NCBI GenBank assembly: GCA_947442095.1
Contig: CANEVG010000003.1
Location: 1 to 34,095, forward strand
Length of the DNA: 34,095 bases
Reading direction: 5' to 3'
Origin: Sphingomonadaceae bacterium
Lineage (GTDB): Bacteria; Pseudomonadota; Alphaproteobacteria; Sphingomonadales; Sphingomonadaceae
In this document: piece after piece, positions 1 to 8,277 of the stretch
Layout: each line of letters starts with the position of its first letter
Position numbering within the stretch: the stretch's first letter is position 1
Translations under genes and position numbers: made by a program
The notes under the pieces: model-generated
Databases searched by the model: none
Told to the model about the DNA's origin: nothing
Seen by the model: only the letters and a program-made list of their open reading frames with translations

Positions 1-1443
1 CCTAGCACTACTTTGGCAGATTGTTCATTATGGTCCTGTCGATGATTTTGTCGCAGTGCGGGCATCGGCTTGGTGGTGGTCGTGCGAAGATGTCAAGAAT
101 GGCTTGCCTGATCGCTGGCATGGTCGGCTGTGGCGGCGGCCCCCCGACTCTTTTTTTTCCGTCCCGCTGCTTTGAGGCGGCGAGATTGGAGGAAGGCGAA
201 GGCGATCATCGCCATCAGGCAATGTCGGTGCAATCCTCTCCATGACCTGCCTTCGAAGTGATCCAGCCCAAGTTCTTCCTTGAGCTGCTGGTGCGCCTGC
301 TCGCAAATCCATCTCGCCTTGATCGCGGCGGCAAGTGTCTTGAGTGTGGCATCGGCAGGCAGGTTCGAGAGGTAATATTTCTGCTCTCCGGTTTTGCGGC
401 GTTCGCCAACCAGCCAGACTTCCTCTTCGCCGGGCATGGCCTGGACCCGGCCGTCGCTCATCCGGTGTCGGTGGCCATCTGCGACCCGGACACGGCAGGC
501 AGCAAATCGGCAGGTCAGCTTGCCTTTGGTCCCGCGCCGCCAACTGATCGTTTTCCATTTCGCCTCGGCAAGCATTGTTTCGGCAGAGACTGCAACGCCG
601 TCGGGCACATGATATTTGCGGCGCCTTCCTGTCGCTGCTTCGGGGAATATCAGTCCGATATCTGCCCGATACACATTCTGGCGCCGTGATATGCCGACAG
701 CCCATAGCAGGCCACGTTTGCTCAAGGCCTGGCGGAACGGCCCGCTCGATCCATAGCCGGCATCGGCCAGTACACAGCCAAAGCGGGCGCCAGCGGAGAT
801 GACGCGGTCAATCTCCTCGATAGCAATCTCCGGCTTTGTCAGGGCAACCTGCCGCTCATGCGGGACCCTCGCCCGCTCCATACGTTCGACATCACCCGTC
901 CAGTTCTCCGGCAAGAACAGGCGTAGACCAACCATGACCGGTACCTCGCGAGATGCCAGGGTCACCGAGACAAGGGATTGGCAATTGGAAGTCTTGCCTA
1001 GCGAAGATGCATACTGCGGTGCCACGCCAACCGAATGGCTGCCCTTCTTCGGCAGAGCTGTGTCGTCGATTACAAGAAAGCCGTTCTCATCGCCTACCAA
1101 GCGGTCGGCCTCCTGCAGGAGAATAGTCTCGAGCGGGGCGCTATCCCAAACCCCTTCGGCTACGAAATGATGAAGTTGGTCGTAGCCAAACTCGCCGTCA
1201 CGAGCCGCCATCGGTTGCACGCTCTTGCGATCACCCGGACCGATCAGTCCGGCGATGTACGCCGGGCAAAGCCTCATCCTGGACTTGTGCCGCAAAGCCG
1301 CCAGAAATGGCGCAAGCCAAACCTCCAGATCGCCCCGCCAGTACTCTGCCATCGCCAGCCTCCCATAAAGCTGGCTCCCCATGAATCACCAAAATAGCTC
1401 CTTGGGAATCGGAAAATTACACTTCTGCCAAAGTAGTGCTAGG
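1..1443 (-). mobile_element. IS701-like insertion sequence, complete or nearly so, abutting the left window edge
   Basis: Perfect 20-bp terminal inverted repeats: cctagcactactttggcaga (1-20) and tctgccaaagtagtgctagg (1424-1443), flanking a DDE transposase ORF. The outer CTAG (2-5, 1439-1442) may be a palindromic target duplication rather than part of the IR. Confidence 0.9.
93..1382 (-). CDS. IS701 family DDE transposase (zero-frame product, 429 aa)
   Basis: DDE endonuclease-like sequence (FLVIDDTALPKKGSHSVGVAPQY, VLADAGYGSS, RWICEQAHQQLKEELGLDHFEGRSWRGLHRH) inside matched inverted repeats. Confidence 0.88.
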   Translation of the reverse strand: MGSQLYGRLAMAEYWRGDLEVWLAPFLAALRHKSRMRLCPAYIAGLIGPGDRKSVQPMAARDGEFGYDQLHHFVAEGVWDSAPLETILLQEADRLVGDENGFLVIDDTALPKKGSHSVGVAPQYASSLGKTSNCQSLVSVTLASREVPVMVGLRLFLPENWTGDVERMERARVPHERQVALTKPEIAIEEIDRVISAGARFGCVLADAGYGSSGPFRQALSKRGLLWAVGISRRQNVYRADIGLIFPEAATGRRRKYHVPDGVAVSAETMLAEAKWKTISWRRGTKGKLTCRFAACRVRVADGHRHRMSDGRVQAMPGEEEVWLVGERRKTGEQKYYLSNLPADATLKTLAAAIKARWICEQAHQQLKEELGLDHFEGRSWRGLHRHCLMAMIAFAFLQSRRLKAAGRKKKSRGAAATADHASDQASHS

Positions 1444-1494: not shown

Positions 1495-2541
1495 TTAGCG
1501 CACAGAAGGCAATTCCGCCAGCAAGCGGGCCACTTGTTCACGCATTCCAGGCTTGTTCACGAGTCTCTCGTATAGCACTCTTGCTATGGCATGGTTTCCT
1601 AGCCTCGTCTCAGCTTCGGCCTCCAGCAAAAGTGCGGCGGTGAAATCACGCTTGAAGTCCATTGGCATGGCCTGAAGCGACGTGCGCGCTTCGGCCCAGC
1701 GCCCACGCATGGCATCCAGCCGCGCTGCGGAAAAGCGCAGCAGCGGAAATTTGGGATGCTTGGCCAGCGCGATTTTGAGCGCCTTCTGCGCTTCATCCAG
1801 CCGGCCCAGATCAAGCAGCAGCCCCGCGGCATTTGCGAAAGGTACCGCAAAATCCGGATAGGTCCTGGCCGCAATCTGATAGGGTTCCAGCGCGCCCGCA
1901 AGGTCGCTTTTGGCAATCCTGCTTTCTCCTTGCAGGAGCAAGGCCTCATAATTGTGCGGATCGGCCTGCAGCGCTGCTGCGACATGCGCGTCAGCCGCTT
2001 CCCAATTTCCCTGCAAGGCCAGCAAGCGGCCCGCTCGTGCATGCAGATCAGCAGACCGTGGATAGAGGACGAGGGCAGCGTCAGCAATCTCCGCCGCCTT
2101 TTCGGCCTTGCCCTCCTCCATCGCCGCCCAAACCAGCAACCAAGCATGCCGATCTGGCGGGGGCCGCGTTCCGTTATACTGCTTGATCAGGCTATGCGCA
2201 CTGCGGGTCGCGCCTTGCAGGATCATCGATTGCGCGCGCATCGCGATCCATTCGCTGGTTTCGCCGCTGAACGATCGCCACTCATTGAGCTGGTATTCGG
2301 CCGCATAGCCATCGCCCAGTTCCAGCGCCACGCGTGCGCGCCCTTTGGTGGTTGCAGCGGATGGTCCTGCGGTATCCTGGATTTCGATCAGCTTGCTCCG
2401 CGCATCGCGGAAGCGATGTTCGGTCAGAGCCTGTTCGGCCTGGTTCTGTTCGGCGCGTATCGCATCGGCAGTGGGCCCCGTGTCGCAGCCGCCCAGCAGG
2501 ACAAGCAAGAGCAGCAGAGACGAGATGCGTTTGAATGCCAT
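1495..2541 (-). CDS. TPR-repeat lipoprotein
   Basis: Signal peptide with lipobox (LLLLLVLLGGC) followed by TPR-like repeats (NWEAADAHVAAALQADPHNYEALLLQGES, GRLDEAQKALKIALAKHPKF). ATG at 2541 preferred over TTG at 2547. Confidence 0.75.
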   Translation of the reverse strand: MAFKRISSLLLLLVLLGGCDTGPTADAIRAEQNQAEQALTEHRFRDARSKLIEIQDTAGPSAATTKGRARVALELGDGYAAEYQLNEWRSFSGETSEWIAMRAQSMILQGATRSAHSLIKQYNGTRPPPDRHAWLLVWAAMEEGKAEKAAEIADAALVLYPRSADLHARAGRLLALQGNWEAADAHVAAALQADPHNYEALLLQGESRIAKSDLAGALEPYQIAARTYPDFAVPFANAAGLLLDLGRLDEAQKALKIALAKHPKFPLLRFSAARLDAMRGRWAEARTSLQAMPMDFKRDFTAALLLEAEAETRLGNHAIARVLYERLVNKPGMREQVARLLAELPSVR

Positions 2542-2645: not shown

Positions 2646-3407
2646 TTACTCGGGCTTGCGGCCGTTCTTGACCTTCCAGCGTCTGCGACCCCAGATTGCC
2701 GCAGCTGTGCCCAGCCCAAAGAGGCCCAGCATACCCGGCTCTGGCACCTCGGTACCGCCGGAAGTCGAGGAAGAACCACCGCTGGACGAGCCGCCAGAGG
2801 TCGAGCTGGTCGACGTGGTGCTGCCGCCCGAGGTGGAGGTGGTCGAACCGCCGCTTGAAGTCGAAGTGGAACCGCCACCCGAGGTCGAGGTGGAGCCGCC
2901 CGAGGTCGATGAGGAACCGCCGCCCGAAGTCGTCGAGGAGCTGCCGCCCGAGGTCGATGAGGACGAGCCGCCCTTCTTGGAGTCGCCGCCCTTCTTCGAT
3001 CCCTTCTTCGAATCGCCGCCGCTGCTGCTGCTGGATGATCCGTAGTGATCGTCACCGCCGCTGCTGGTGCTGGAGCCACCCTTCTTGGAGTCGCCGCCCT
3101 TTTTGGAATCGCCACCGCTGGTGCTGCTCGACGATCCATAGTGATCGTCGCCGCCGCTGCTGCTGGACGAACCCTTCTTGGAAGACCCCTTCTTGGAATC
3201 GCCGCCCTTCTTGCTGCTGCTCAGGTTGGCTGCAATGTCGCTCTCGAACAGGCTGCTGAAACCATCGCCAAGGCCGTGATCATTGATCGATGACGCAGTG
3301 CTGGTCTGGGGCAGTTCGACAGCGTGTGCGGGAGCCGCAATGCCACTGACGGACATCGCCAATGCAGCGCCAAGAAATGACGTGTCTTTGATGCTCTGTT
3401 TCTTCAA
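2646..3407 (-). CDS. PEP-CTERM sorting domain protein with Ser/Gly/Lys/Thr-rich low-complexity region
   Basis: N-terminal signal peptide (MKKQSIKDTSFLGAALAMSVSGIAAPAHA), repetitive SKKGGDSKKG / GGDDHYGSSSS region, C-terminal VPEPGMLGLFGLGTAAAIWGRRR (PEP motif + TM + Arg cluster). TTG start preceded by AAGGAG. Confidence 0.88.
   Translation of the reverse strand: MKKQSIKDTSFLGAALAMSVSGIAAPAHAVELPQTSTASSINDHGLGDGFSSLFESDIAANLSSSKKGGDSKKGSSKKGSSSSSGGDDHYGSSSSTSGGDSKKGGDSKKGGSSTSSGGDDHYGSSSSSSGGDSKKGSKKGGDSKKGGSSSSTSGGSSSTTSGGGSSSTSGGSTSTSGGGSTSTSSGGSTTSTSGGSTTSTSSTSGGSSSGGSSSTSGGTEVPEPGMLGLFGLGTAAAIWGRRRWKVKNGRKPE
2758..3221. repeat. Degenerate in-frame repeats within the PEP-CTERM gene
   Basis: Repeated SKKGG(D) units and two near-identical GGDDHYGSSSS-encoding blocks (about 3034-3060 and 3130-3155, ~96 bp apart), then GGSTSTSGGG-type repeats. 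Confidence 0.75.
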
Positions 3408-3544: not shown

Positions 3545-5935
3545 CTAGGCCGCAATTCTGTGGGCGAACCGAAACAGATCGCGATGGTTCTCGGGGACCT
3601 GATTGTGTTCCTGATCGGAGATACCCATTGCTGCGTGCGATTCAAACGCCAGCGTGTCGTGGAACCATGGCATTGTATAAGTGAAGTAAAGCATCGGGCG
3701 TCCATGCGATGCAGCGCATGGCATGCCGCCGTGATAGGTGCGATAGTCTAGAACCAGCGCACTTCCTGCTCGGGTGTAAGCAATGTGAGGATCGCCAGAC
3801 CAGCCTTCACTTCGCGCAGTGCGGTGCGTTCCTTCCCAGAACTGGGTTCCGCCTGCTTCTTCATCCAGGTCGATAAGGGGGATGAGAATGGTGGTGGCAT
3901 AGCACGGCACATTGGCGTTGCCCGCGTCGCTGTGAAACAGCAGCGGATGTTCGCGGTGAACGTGCTGCATCCGCGCGCCTTCATAGGTCGTTACCGAACC
4001 GAAGGCGTGCAGCACCGGCTTTTCGCCCATGACTCGCGTCAGCGTGTCAAGCAGAACGGAATTGGCATAGACCGAAGGATTGTTGAACGGCGCTTGTAGC
4101 CGCACGGGAATGGTAAAGCGCTTGTCGCCGACATTGTTGGGCTTGCCCAGTTCCGAGGTATGCCAATCGCGCACCCTGATTTGCAATGCCTCGCGCAGCT
4201 CGACCACGACATCGGGGTGAAGCAGATCTTCAATCAGCACTGCGCCGCGCTCGTTGAGCAGATCCGCAGCCTTGGCGGCAACGTTCTGTTCGAGGCTCGA
4301 TACGGTCAGATGCGCATACTTGGTCGTGGTGGTTGCCGCAGCCTCCGGCTCCTCCTCGAACAGATTGGCAATCATGCGCTGGGCCGGGAGAAATTGCGGA
4401 TTAAGCTTAGCGGCAGCGCGCATCACGGCTTCTGCCTTGGCAGCATCGCCCAAATGATAGATTGCCAGCGCTTTTTCATACAAGCGCGGCGCATTTTCGC
4501 CGAATTCACCGATGGTATGTTCGATCAGTTGCAACGCCTGCACGTGATAGCCAAGCCGCAAAAGCATCTGCGCAATGCCGCAGTCAAAAATGACATCCGA
4601 GCCGTCGGGCAAATAGGCACGAAAGGCCTCCATGAAGGTCTCGTACAATTGCTCTCGGTCGATCTCTTCTTCACCCTGTTCGATATTGAACAAGATCGGC
4701 CGGATGCATGCCGCAGCAACATCGGGATCAAACTTCGAGAAACGGATCAGGGCCATAATCTGCCGGATCGACATCCCTCCAACGTTGCCCTCGATCATCT
4801 CGATGATTTCGTGCGCATCGTAAGGATTGAAGTCCTTGAGCAAGGTGAGCGCGGTTTCGCGCGTGCGCGACAAAGTCAGCTCCTGCCAACGCTGCTTTCC
4901 GGGCAGTGAAAGCAGGTTGCAACTGAAATTGGCGTCCTTGTGGCGCTGGGATTGCATGGCGCCGCCGTATGCGCCGAACAGTTCTCCAAAGAGATGCATG
5001 TTTGTGTAGTGGGCAAAATAGGTGTCGAATATGAGCGGGCTTCGCAACTGGAACTCGGCCGGGTCCGAATAAGCAAGGTCGCCTGTCAGCAGCAGCAGCG
5101 GCGTATCGCGCTCAAGGAACCTTTCCACGAATTCGAGAGAAATCTGCGGCACGACGACATGAAAATCGCCGGGCTTCTCGGCATAGCGGCGCAATGCTGC
5201 GTCGATCAGCGGATGCCCGGTTGGATCGCCCGTGATCGGCCGACTCTCGAACCGTTCGGTCACGCTTTCGAACGAGGTGATCGGCATTTTCAGGAAGTCA
5301 CGCGATGTGGACTGCGTCTCCATGTAGACTTGCTCGATCTCGTGATTGCATACGCGAACCATGTTTGATGCGATCGAATCAAACAGATAGTTCGCGATGA
5401 TAATCACCGGGCGATCGGCCAGATCTTGGGGCTTCAAATCGCCTTTTTCAGTGCGGATCACGGGATCGGCTTCAATCAGAAGCTCCGCAAACTCCAGCAC
5501 ACCGCTTTCAACCAAAGGTGAAAAGCGTTCCTTCTTCTTCCAGCCCTCGATGTTCTTGGCTGAACCGTCTGTCAGAAGATACGTGAATTCGGGGCAATCA
5601 TCGCTGCCTGCAAAGTGATAGTTGAACAGGCGATTGAGAAACTGCCAGGCAAACCGTCCACTGCCCCCGCCAAGCTCGATGATCAGGGGCGGCTGGCTGT
5701 TGCCTTCGGCAACCAGTTCCTTGAAAAAAGACGCGACAATCGAGGCATACGTGTCAGCGCAGAAAGCATTGGACGTACTGCGCTGCGGCACGATCTTGTT
5801 CGACCATGCCTCTGGCCCGGCTTCTGTGTAAAAACGATGGAGAAGTGACCAGACGATAGACTGATCAAACCGAATCATCTCCTGAATTATCGGCATAGAT
5901 AGAGCTTTCGAGTGCTTCCACGTGAGGTTCGCCAT
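3545..5935 (-). CDS. Multidomain protein: N-terminal SAM-dependent methyltransferase (MidA-like), TPR-like linker, C-terminal phytanoyl-CoA dioxygenase (PhyH)-like domain
   Basis: Glycine-rich SAM motif LIIELGGGSGRFAWQFL and ANYLFDS (cf. ANEFFD of MidA/NDUFAF7-like enzymes); TPR-like ALAIYHLGDAAKAEAVMRAAAKLNPQFLPAQRM; HSD (3926-3934) and distal TYHGG/RP motifs of Fe(II)/2OG dioxygenases. ORF open to 6070, but the first 45 residues look non-native; start uncertain (5935 or later). Confidence 0.75.
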   Translation of the reverse strand: MANLTWKHSKALSMPIIQEMIRFDQSIVWSLLHRFYTEAGPEAWSNKIVPQRSTSNAFCADTYASIVASFFKELVAEGNSQPPLIIELGGGSGRFAWQFLNRLFNYHFAGSDDCPEFTYLLTDGSAKNIEGWKKKERFSPLVESGVLEFAELLIEADPVIRTEKGDLKPQDLADRPVIIIANYLFDSIASNMVRVCNHEIEQVYMETQSTSRDFLKMPITSFESVTERFESRPITGDPTGHPLIDAALRRYAEKPGDFHVVVPQISLEFVERFLERDTPLLLLTGDLAYSDPAEFQLRSPLIFDTYFAHYTNMHLFGELFGAYGGAMQSQRHKDANFSCNLLSLPGKQRWQELTLSRTRETALTLLKDFNPYDAHEIIEMIEGNVGGMSIRQIMALIRFSKFDPDVAAACIRPILFNIEQGEEEIDREQLYETFMEAFRAYLPDGSDVIFDCGIAQMLLRLGYHVQALQLIEHTIGEFGENAPRLYEKALAIYHLGDAAKAEAVMRAAAKLNPQFLPAQRMIANLFEEEPEAAATTTTKYAHLTVSSLEQNVAAKAADLLNERGAVLIEDLLHPDVVVELREALQIRVRDWHTSELGKPNNVGDKRFTIPVRLQAPFNNPSVYANSVLLDTLTRVMGEKPVLHAFGSVTTYEGARMQHVHREHPLLFHSDAGNANVPCYATTILIPLIDLDEEAGGTQFWEGTHRTARSEGWSGDPHIAYTRAGSALVLDYRTYHGGMPCAASHGRPMLYFTYTMPWFHDTLAFESHAAMGISDQEHNQVPENHRDLFRFAHRIAA

Positions 5936-6794
5936 GAACTCCGAGCAGAGCCCATATGGATGAGGGGCTAAAACTAGGGGAATATGGTAAACAATCCGCA
6001 AACCAGTTCCGACTGCGGGCTTGCGAACACGATGCTGCCACCAGCTTTCAGGCGAGTGGTGGTGGTGCATTGCCGGTTGAATTGACGCGTCGGAAGCGCT
6101 GTGTCCGCCCTAAGCTGTCGAGACCCATCTCCGGTACGGTGCGCCATGAGCTATCGCCGCGCTGCGGCGCTTGCCGGCGCAACGCTGGCCCACGCGCAAA
6201 CCCGGCCCCCCAATAGATGCTCGGACCACCGCTGCCACCGGCGCGCCCCCAGCCGAGAATGCGGTGTGAAGCGCAACTGCGCCAAGGTCTTTAAGGTCTA
6301 AAAGCCGGTGTTCCTATCCGCCCGATGAATTCAGGGCCGGAATCGGCACAGTGACAAAACCATGTAAAATGCGCCCGTCGGTCCAGCCGATTCATGCCCG
6401 CGTTTAGAAACGTGCCAGGATGTTGTTCAGAAACGGGTTTGGGATGCGCTGTTGCCGGACCGCTTGATCGAATGGGATTGGCGGGTTCCGGTAGGAGCGG
6501 CCCTTCGCGCTCACGCAAGGGAACGGCGAAAATTGGATCGCAACCTGCTTGTTAGCAACCGGCACCAAAGGTGCCATAGTTGGGGGGGTGATGAACGACG
6601 GGTTTTGCATTCCCACGGCAAAGCCGCGAACGGCGGCAATGCCGACGAAACCAAGGCTAGCAGTCGATCCGTCAGTGTACTGGCCAAAGCCTGATGAAAA
6701 CGCCGCCCGGAAAGCGTCTTCAACGGCGTGCTACCTAGAATGCTACCTAAGGGAGAATGGCAGATCGCCGTCCTGCAATCTTGCGGATGCAAGT

Positions 6795-6815: not shown

Positions 6816-6891
6816 TGGTGAGCCCTGCTGGGTTCGAACCAGCGACCTACTGATTAAAAGTCAGTTGCTCTACCGACTGAGCTAAGGGCCC
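6816..6891 (-). tRNA. tRNA-Lys (anticodon TTT), CCA encoded
   Basis: GGGCCCTTAGCTCAGTCGGTAGAGCAACTGACTTTTAATCAGTAGGTCGCTGGTTCGAACCCAGCAGGGCTCACCA: cloverleaf arms pair, anticodon loop CTTTTAA, GGTTCGAACC T-arm. Confidence 0.97.
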
Positions 6892-7410: not shown

Positions 7411-8277
7411 CTAGATGTCTTGGGCAAGCAGGGCGTATAACTCGGGCCGGCGATCGCGAAAAAAGCCCATTCCGGCGCGGTGGCGCGCGGCTTCGACAAG
7501 GTCGAGCGTCGCAACGAGCACACCGGTCTCATCCGCGCCGTAGTCCGCCAGGAAATCGCCCCACTGATCTGCGATGAAGCTGTGGCCATAGAAGCGCTGC
7601 AGCGGCGTGCCCTGAACGCTCTCGCTGCCGATGCGGTTGGCGGCGACCACGGGCATGCAGTTCGACACGGCATGGCCGAGCATCGCGCGGCGCCAGACGC
7701 GGCTGGTCTCGAGGTCAGGGTCGTATGGCTCGCTGCCGATGGCCGTGGGATAGAACAGCACTTCCGCGCCCATCAAGGCCATCGCGCGCGCGCATTCCGG
7801 ATACCACTGATCCCAACACACGCCCACGCCAATGCGTGTGCCCATCACATTCCACACCTTGAACCCCGTGTTGCCGGGGCGAAAATAGTACTTTTCCTCA
7901 TAGCCCGGGCCGTCCGGGATGTGGCTCTTGCGATAGGTGCCCATGATCTCGCCGTCAGGGCCAATCATCGCCAGCGTGTTGTAGAAATGCGGTCCATCAC
8001 GCTCAAAGAAGCTGGTGGGGATGGCGATGCCGAGGCGTTTTGCGAGTGCCTGCATCGCCTTGACCGAAGGATCTTCCGCAAGCGGATGCGCGAGGGCGAA
8101 GAGCGCCTCGTCCTCGACAGTGCAGAAATAAGGCCCGGCAAAAAGCTCGGGCGGAAGCACGATCTGCGCGCCCGCCTGTGCCGCCTGCTCGACCAGCGCG
8201 GCGACGGCATCGATGTTGGTCTGCGGATCAGGCGCATGGAGCGCCAGCTGCAGTGCAGCTACGGTGAGCTTGGTCAT
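7411..8277 (-). CDS. aguB: N-carbamoylputrescine amidase (nitrilase superfamily)
   Basis: Carbon-nitrogen hydrolase E-K-C motifs (LPPELFAGPYFC, YRKSHIPDGPGYEEKYYFRPGNTGFKVW, GVGVCWDQWYPECARAMALMGAEVLFYPTAIGSEP). Confidence 0.9.
   Translation of the reverse strand: MTKLTVAALQLALHAPDPQTNIDAVAALVEQAAQAGAQIVLPPELFAGPYFCTVEDEALFALAHPLAEDPSVKAMQALAKRLGIAIPTSFFERDGPHFYNTLAMIGPDGEIMGTYRKSHIPDGPGYEEKYYFRPGNTGFKVWNVMGTRIGVGVCWDQWYPECARAMALMGAEVLFYPTAIGSEPYDPDLETSRVWRRAMLGHAVSNCMPVVAANRIGSESVQGTPLQRFYGHSFIADQWGDFLADYGADETGVLVATLDLVEAARHRAGMGFFRDRRPELYALLAQDI

What the first reader, a model, noticed from the sequence alone, without database searches (positions are those of the whole stretch)
3545..6070. 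Three-domain fusion: MidA-like methyltransferase + TPR + phytanoyl-dioxygenase in one polypeptide
Seen: one uninterrupted frame with a SAM-binding motif (IIELGGGSGRF, ~5654-5683 encoding), a TPR-like segment, then a non-heme Fe/2OG dioxygenase HSD facial-triad pair (3926-3934) with distal His (TYHGG, 3731-3733) and Arg. Known: MidA-like methyltransferases and PhyH dioxygenases are separate families. Inference: coupled methylation and hydroxylation of one substrate, with TPRs as scaffold; it lies co-directionally just upstream of a PEP-CTERM gene, so modification of an exported protein or polysaccharide is a testable idea. This is my best candidate for an undescribed system here.
Basis: partly seen in the sequence, partly recalled or inferred. 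Interest (0 to 1): 0.68.

Follow-up and report, generated by a model that had tools for sequence, protein, structure and literature searches.

The report
Two-enzyme fusion beside a lysine-pair protein
A bacterial gene that fuses a methyl-adding enzyme to an oxygen-adding enzyme is always found next to a gene for an exported, Ser/Gly-rich protein studded with lysine pairs, which suggests a dedicated system for chemically modifying a cell-surface protein, as diatoms do for their silica-forming proteins; the chemistry itself is still untested.

Summary
The fusion is real: one frame (3545-6070, minus strand; true start most likely the ATG at 5896, 783 aa) with a remote MidA-like class-I methyltransferase domain, a short TPR segment and a C-terminal PhyH dioxygenase domain. 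It is conserved full-length in seven other genomes (54-93% identity). The gene heads a three-gene cassette: fusion, exported PEP-CTERM protein, TPR lipoprotein. The PEP-CTERM protein has a Ser/Gly/Thr-rich repeat region in which lysines occur almost only as pairs (SKKG...) and arginine never. The trio is seen in all six loci long enough to show it, at changing chromosomal sites. Among 401 family genomes, fusion and lysine-pair protein occur in exactly the same three, while related Ser/Gly-rich PEP-CTERM proteins are common there (169 genomes). Best explanation: the fusion methylates and hydroxylates the lysine pairs before export, giving a silaffin- or HBHA-like surface protein. The linkage is shown; the chemistry and target are inferred. 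Structure prediction failed.

The parts
3545..5896 (-). Fusion gene: MidA-like methyltransferase + TPR + PhyH dioxygenase, 783 aa from ATG at 5896 (frame open to 6070)
   Evidence: dN/dS 0.07-0.11 for pairs with finite dS
4907..5896 (-). N-terminal methyltransferase-like domain (residues 1-330)
   Evidence: Methyltransf_28 at 19 bits, below cut-off 23.3; homologous stand-alone L043 at 50 bits; invariant E74xGxGxGR, T109 (D110 nearly), N169YxxD173 across fusions and stand-alone relatives
5654..5677 (-). SAM-binding motif ELGGGSGR (residues 74-81)
   Evidence: invariant in 8 fusions
4352..4594 (-). TPR segment, about residues 435-515
   Evidence: family profile A5 matches TPR structures over positions about 443-513; weak in the window protein alone
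3548..4312 (-). C-terminal PhyH-type Fe/2OG dioxygenase domain (residues 529-783)
   Evidence: PhyH 30 bits, cut-off 22; kanamycin B dioxygenase 6.7e-07 by single sequence, 2.4e-32 by profile
3950..3958 (-). Metal-binding pair H647-R-E649 (HxE; HxD in most stand-alone relatives)
3731..3733 (-). Distal metal-binding His H722
   Evidence: invariant; aligns with the distal His of KanJ
3698..3700 (-). Conserved Arg R733 (2-oxoglutarate binding by analogy)
   Evidence: invariant
2646..3407 (-). Exported PEP-CTERM protein with lysine-pair repeats (253 aa, TTG start)
   Evidence: PF07589 27.6 bits; homologous partner in all eight loci
2960..3220 (-). SKKG / SKKGGD repeat stretch: 8 Lys runs, all pairs, no Arg (approximate bounds)
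2679..2747 (-). PEP-CTERM sorting signal
1495..2541 (-). TPR lipoprotein, third gene of the cassette
   Evidence: many TPR hits and TIGR02917 (PrsT) 83 bits, below cut-off 312; same position in L038, L039, L040, L079, L080

Best explanation
The locus is a three-gene cassette for making a chemically modified surface protein. The fusion is a soluble cytoplasmic two-domain enzyme that acts on the neighbouring PEP-CTERM precursor while it is still unfolded. The methyltransferase domain methylates, and the PhyH domain hydroxylates, side chains of the repeat region, most likely the lysine pairs of the SKKG units; the TPR segment holds the substrate. The precursor is then exported by its signal peptide and processed by the genome's exosortase through its PEP-CTERM tail. 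The TPR lipoprotein assists sorting or assembly in the envelope. The product would be a permanently charged, hydroxylated, disordered matrix or adhesion protein. Shown: domain composition, conservation, cassette, co-occurrence, lysine-pair pattern, presence of an exosortase. Inferred: catalytic activity of both domains, the substrate, lysine as target, order of steps and final function.
For: Cassette recurs with the same order, strand and similar gaps in six loci from at least three genera at different chromosomal sites; two further loci show the first two genes before the contig ends. Fusion and lysine-pair protein are each found in 3 of 401 family genomes, the same three (289, 273, 239 bits; next best 66). 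The same profile matches Ser/Gly-rich PEP-CTERM proteins in 169 genomes, including paralogues in the same genomes as the fusion; the control proteins read contain no comparable lysine pairs. In the repeat regions 63 of 70 Lys runs are exact pairs, Arg is absent, and Lys codons vary. Among 318 Alphaproteobacteria the KKG-x-KKG pattern meets such a protein only in the window genome. SAM motif, H647-x-E649, H722 and R733 are invariant in 8 fusions. Both domains are under purifying selection. No hydrophobic segment in the fusion, consistent with a cytoplasmic enzyme. Exosortase in G000, G734 and G645.
Against: No biochemistry. The characterised MidA-type enzyme NDUFAF7 methylates arginine (PMC3829151), and the repeats have none. 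The solved PhyH relatives act mostly on small molecules. HxE in place of HxD could lower activity. Stand-alone relatives of either half show no lysine-pair protein nearby. Low-complexity repeats can expand by slippage. Both structure predictions were unusable (pLDDT 38 and 34).
Confidence: 0.45

Rival explanations
1. The fusion modifies a sugar or small molecule (for instance an exopolysaccharide precursor), and the cationic lysine-pair protein is an independent matrix component that binds that product; the genes travel together because they build one matrix.
For: Closest solved PhyH relative is kanamycin B dioxygenase, which acts on an aminoglycoside. PEP-CTERM systems are linked to exopolysaccharide (PMC1569441).
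Against: No glycosyltransferase or sugar gene belongs to the conserved trio and the flanks differ between loci. Exclusive pairing with lysine-pair repeats is not predicted.
Confidence: 0.2
2. The fusion acts on the same PEP-CTERM protein, but on the conserved GG(H/Y)YG tyrosine/histidine motifs or on Ser/Thr rather than on lysine.
For: HYG, YYG or YG motifs recur between the lysine-pair blocks in all loci. The Ser/Thr/Gly region makes up most of the protein.
Against: Ser/Thr/Gly-rich PEP-CTERM proteins without lysine pairs are common without the fusion; the lysine-pair feature is what tracks it.
Confidence: 0.15
3. Only the PhyH domain is catalytic; the methyltransferase-like domain is a SAM-binding or adaptor module. 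Hydroxylated residues may then be glycosylated or phosphorylated by other enzymes.
For: The methyltransferase domain is remote: below the Pfam cut-off and no significant PDB hit.
Against: SAM motif and N-Y-x-x-D motif are invariant in fusions and stand-alone relatives, and the domain is as constrained as PhyH.
Confidence: 0.12
4. The genes are neighbours without a functional link; the lysine pairs are a low-complexity accident inherited with the cassette.
For: Few independent lineages carry the cassette (the window genome, two genomes of other genera, five related MAGs).
Against: Order kept while the flanks change and identity falls to 54%; lysine pairs retained although repeat units diverged and Lys codons vary.
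Confidence: 0.05

Closest known systems
Diatom silaffins (PMC3820600, PMC4557024)
   Same: Exported Ser-rich, repetitive, disordered proteins with Lys-Lys pairs; in silaffins the lysines carry methyl groups and trimethyl-delta-hydroxylysine, that is methylation plus hydroxylation. The R5 repeat SSKKSGSYSGSKGSK resembles SKKG units with Tyr.
   Different: Eukaryotic, ER-targeted, with polyamine chains and phosphoserine; no sequence homology claimed. Nothing here shows modification or silica binding. The bacterial protein has a PEP-CTERM tail.
Mycobacterial HBHA adhesin (PMC3293801)
   Same: Bacterial surface adhesin with lysine-pair repeats (KKAAPA); its methylation is known (that paper cites work on methylation-dependent immunity to it; methylation on lysine is from own knowledge).
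   Different: Ala/Pro repeats, no PEP-CTERM, no fused dioxygenase and no hydroxylation reported to my knowledge.
MidA/NDUFAF7, Methyltransf_28 (PF02636; PMC3829151)
   Same: N-terminal domain shares the SAM motif and the N-Y-x-x-D region; related stand-alone proteins pass the Pfam cut-off.
   Different: Window protein scores below the cut-off; NDUFAF7 methylates arginine of NDUFS2; no TPR or PhyH there.
PhyH family dioxygenases (PF05721), nearest solved KanJ
   Same: Sequence match over the whole domain, HxD/E...H facial triad, conserved Arg.
   Different: HxE instead of HxD; fused to methyltransferase and TPR; KanJ oxidises kanamycin B.
PEP-CTERM/exosortase sorting and PrsT (PMC1569441)
   Same: C-terminal sorting signal, exosortase in the genome, TPR lipoprotein.
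   Different: PEP-CTERM proteins are on average poor in basic residues (PMC1569441); this one is lysine-rich. The third gene is far below the PrsT cut-off (83 against 312 bits).

Membership tests
PhyH (PF05721) | Profile score over the gathering cut-off | tested here: met
   30 bits, cut-off 22; L079 32.3 and L080 33.1 bits
PhyH (PF05721) | HxD/E...H metal triad and 2OG-binding Arg | tested here: met
   H647-x-E649, H722, R733 invariant in 8 fusions; Glu variant, geometry not modelled
PhyH (PF05721) | Fe(II)/2OG-dependent oxygenase activity | not testable with these tools
   needs assay
MidA / Methyltransf_28 (PF02636) | Profile score over the gathering cut-off | tested here: not met
   19 bits, cut-off 23.3; L079 21.3 and L080 22.6 bits; homologue L043 at 50.2 bits. 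Called MidA-like, not a member.
MidA / Methyltransf_28 (PF02636) | Class-I SAM motif | tested here: met
   ELGGGSGR invariant
PEP-CTERM proteins (PF07589) | C-terminal motif over cut-off, with N-terminal signal | tested here: met
   Window 27.6 bits, cut-off 20.7; L079 and L080 (PAP variant) slightly below, 17.6 and 19.7; signal peptide judged by eye
PEP-CTERM proteins (PF07589) | Exosortase in the same genome | tested here: met
   PF09721 in G000, G734, G645
PrsT (TIGR02917) | Score over the equivalog cut-off | tested here: not met
   83 bits, cut-off 312
Silaffins (works-like comparison only) | Ser-rich exported protein with Lys-Lys pairs | tested here: met
Silaffins (works-like comparison only) | Methylated/hydroxylated lysines, polyamines, silica precipitation | not testable with these tools
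   needs mass spectrometry and a silica assay

The most novel reading that the evidence does not exclude
A bacterial counterpart of the silaffin system: one fused enzyme installs methyl and hydroxyl groups on lysine pairs of a dedicated exosortase-sorted repeat protein, yielding methylated hydroxylysine-rich surface material for adhesion, matrix formation or mineral binding.
Probability: 0.25. Interest if true: 0.9.

Novelty: new variant of a known kind. Interest (0 to 1): 0.66.

Why it matters
The reviews read here name no enzymes for methylating and hydroxylating silaffin lysines beyond proposals, and coupled lysine methylation and hydroxylation by one polypeptide on a dedicated exported substrate is not described as far as I found (literature searches bearing on this returned nothing relevant). 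A compact cassette gives a direct test with one enzyme and one substrate, would explain why one class of PEP-CTERM proteins is lysine-rich, and could supply a tool for making modified cationic biomaterials.

Tried and rejected
AlphaFold2 on the whole fusion and on the PhyH domain alone: pLDDT 38.5 and 34.1 with six similar sequences, so not used and no fold search run. Viral contigs: no relatives. Plasmids: only separate halves at 24-29% identity. Neighbourhoods of stand-alone halves: no lysine-pair proteins, no shared partner seen by eye (listing stopped part-way on an error). Link to the N-carbamoylputrescine amidase upstream (polyamine idea) rejected: not seen beside the other cassettes by inspection of their flanks. 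Methyltransferase domain against PDB: nothing significant.

Full report
Observation. The frame 3545-6070(-) is uninterrupted. Homologues start at MPIIQ/MPVIQ, so the likely product is 783 aa from 5896; residue numbers below count from there. PhyH passes the Pfam cut-off; Methyltransf_28 does not (19 against 23.3 bits); TPR hits are weak. A profile from fusions plus stand-alone relatives finds KanJ (2.4e-32) for the C-terminal part and TPR structures for the middle, but no methyltransferase structure for the N-terminal part. The stand-alone relative L043, 26% identical over about 530 residues, reaches 50 bits for Methyltransf_28, so the N-terminal domain is a remote MidA-like methyltransferase.

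Active sites. ELGGGSGR (74-81), T109-D110 and N169YxxD173 are invariant in eight fusions. Alignment to stand-alone PhyH proteins (HVHRDHP, HLHADHP and others) and to KanJ (VHLDEP) shows that the metal pair is H647-x-E649, with H722 and R733. The Glu is specific to the fusions among the sequences aligned, apart from one distant relative without either residue. From general knowledge, HxE triads occur in active 2OG enzymes such as clavaminate synthase.

Distribution. Full-length fusions: five MAGs named Erythrobacteraceae, Erythrobacter or Novosphingobium at 75-93% identity, and G734 (59%) and G645 (54%) of other genera. 3 of 401 genomes of the family carry it; no full-length copy in samples of class or phylum outside the family. 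dN/dS is 0.07-0.11 for the window pairs; synonymous sites are saturated between L079 and L080.

Cassette. In window, L038, L039, L040, L079 and L080 the fusion is followed on the same strand, after 137-229 bp, by a PEP-CTERM-type protein and, after 38-107 bp, by a TPR lipoprotein. L036 and L037 show the first two genes before the contig ends. Flanking genes differ (HPPK/tRNA-Lys and IS701 in the window; TonB receptor after L038; NAPRTase after L039; LOG-like protein before L040; gpmA/purE-like genes near L079; MacB-like permease near L080), so the trio stays together while its location changes.

Putative substrate. The PEP-CTERM proteins share a signal-like N-terminus and a Ser/Gly/Thr-rich region with SKKG, SKKGGD or SKKGSKKG units alternating with GG(H/Y)YG motifs. 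Of 70 lysine runs in eight proteins (two incomplete), 63 are exact pairs; Arg is absent; Lys codons mix AAG and AAA, about half AAA in L080. A profile of these proteins hits 169 of 401 family genomes, mostly through the Ser/Gly tail and PEP-CTERM signal, but full-length strong hits (239-289 bits; next 66) fall only in the three fusion genomes. Of the weaker hits examined, none has three or more KKG/KKS pairs, and other PEP-CTERM paralogues in G645 and G734 have none. If the two features were independent, the chance of the same three of 401 genomes is about 1 in 10.7 million; physical linkage makes this one linked unit rather than three independent events. An exosortase is present in all three genomes.

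Mechanism. PEP-CTERM proteins are on average poor in basic residues (PMC1569441), so paired lysines without arginine are unusual and point to lysine-specific chemistry. Silaffins combine Lys-Lys pairs in Ser-rich repeats with methyl-lysine and trimethyl-delta-hydroxylysine (PMC3820600, PMC4557024). A methyltransferase fused to a hydroxylase, always beside such repeats, fits that chemistry. This is analogy, not homology, and no modification has been observed. The linkage to the PEP-CTERM protein is strong; the target residue, the activity of both domains and the biological role are inference.

Limits. Structure prediction failed. The phyletic test uses samples of the family and class, not all genomes. 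The lysine-pair pattern search used a narrow motif. Repeat regions from MAG contigs may be misassembled, although independent genomes agree.

Noticed in passing
window 93-1382(-): IS701-family transposase directly downstream of the cassette (414.7 bits), consistent with a mobile neighbourhood.
   Followed up: partly
window 7411-8277(-): N-carbamoylputrescine amidase (AguB, 433 bits) close upstream; not seen beside the other cassettes whose flanks were inspected.
   Followed up: partly
window 6816-6891(-): tRNA-Lys (TTT) between the cassette and HPPK, a possible integration site.
   Followed up: no
L122, L123, L099, L113: Many Sphingomonadales genomes encode several Ser/Gly/Thr-rich PEP-CTERM proteins, often in tandem; 169 of 401 genomes match the profile.
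   Followed up: partly
L043, L044, L049, L050, L052: A scattered family of stand-alone MidA-like methyltransferase-TPR proteins (about 535-610 aa) in Alphaproteobacteria, with no description found here.
   Followed up: partly
L079:1934-3724(+): Carbamoyltransferase gene a few kb downstream of the cassette in G734.
   Followed up: no
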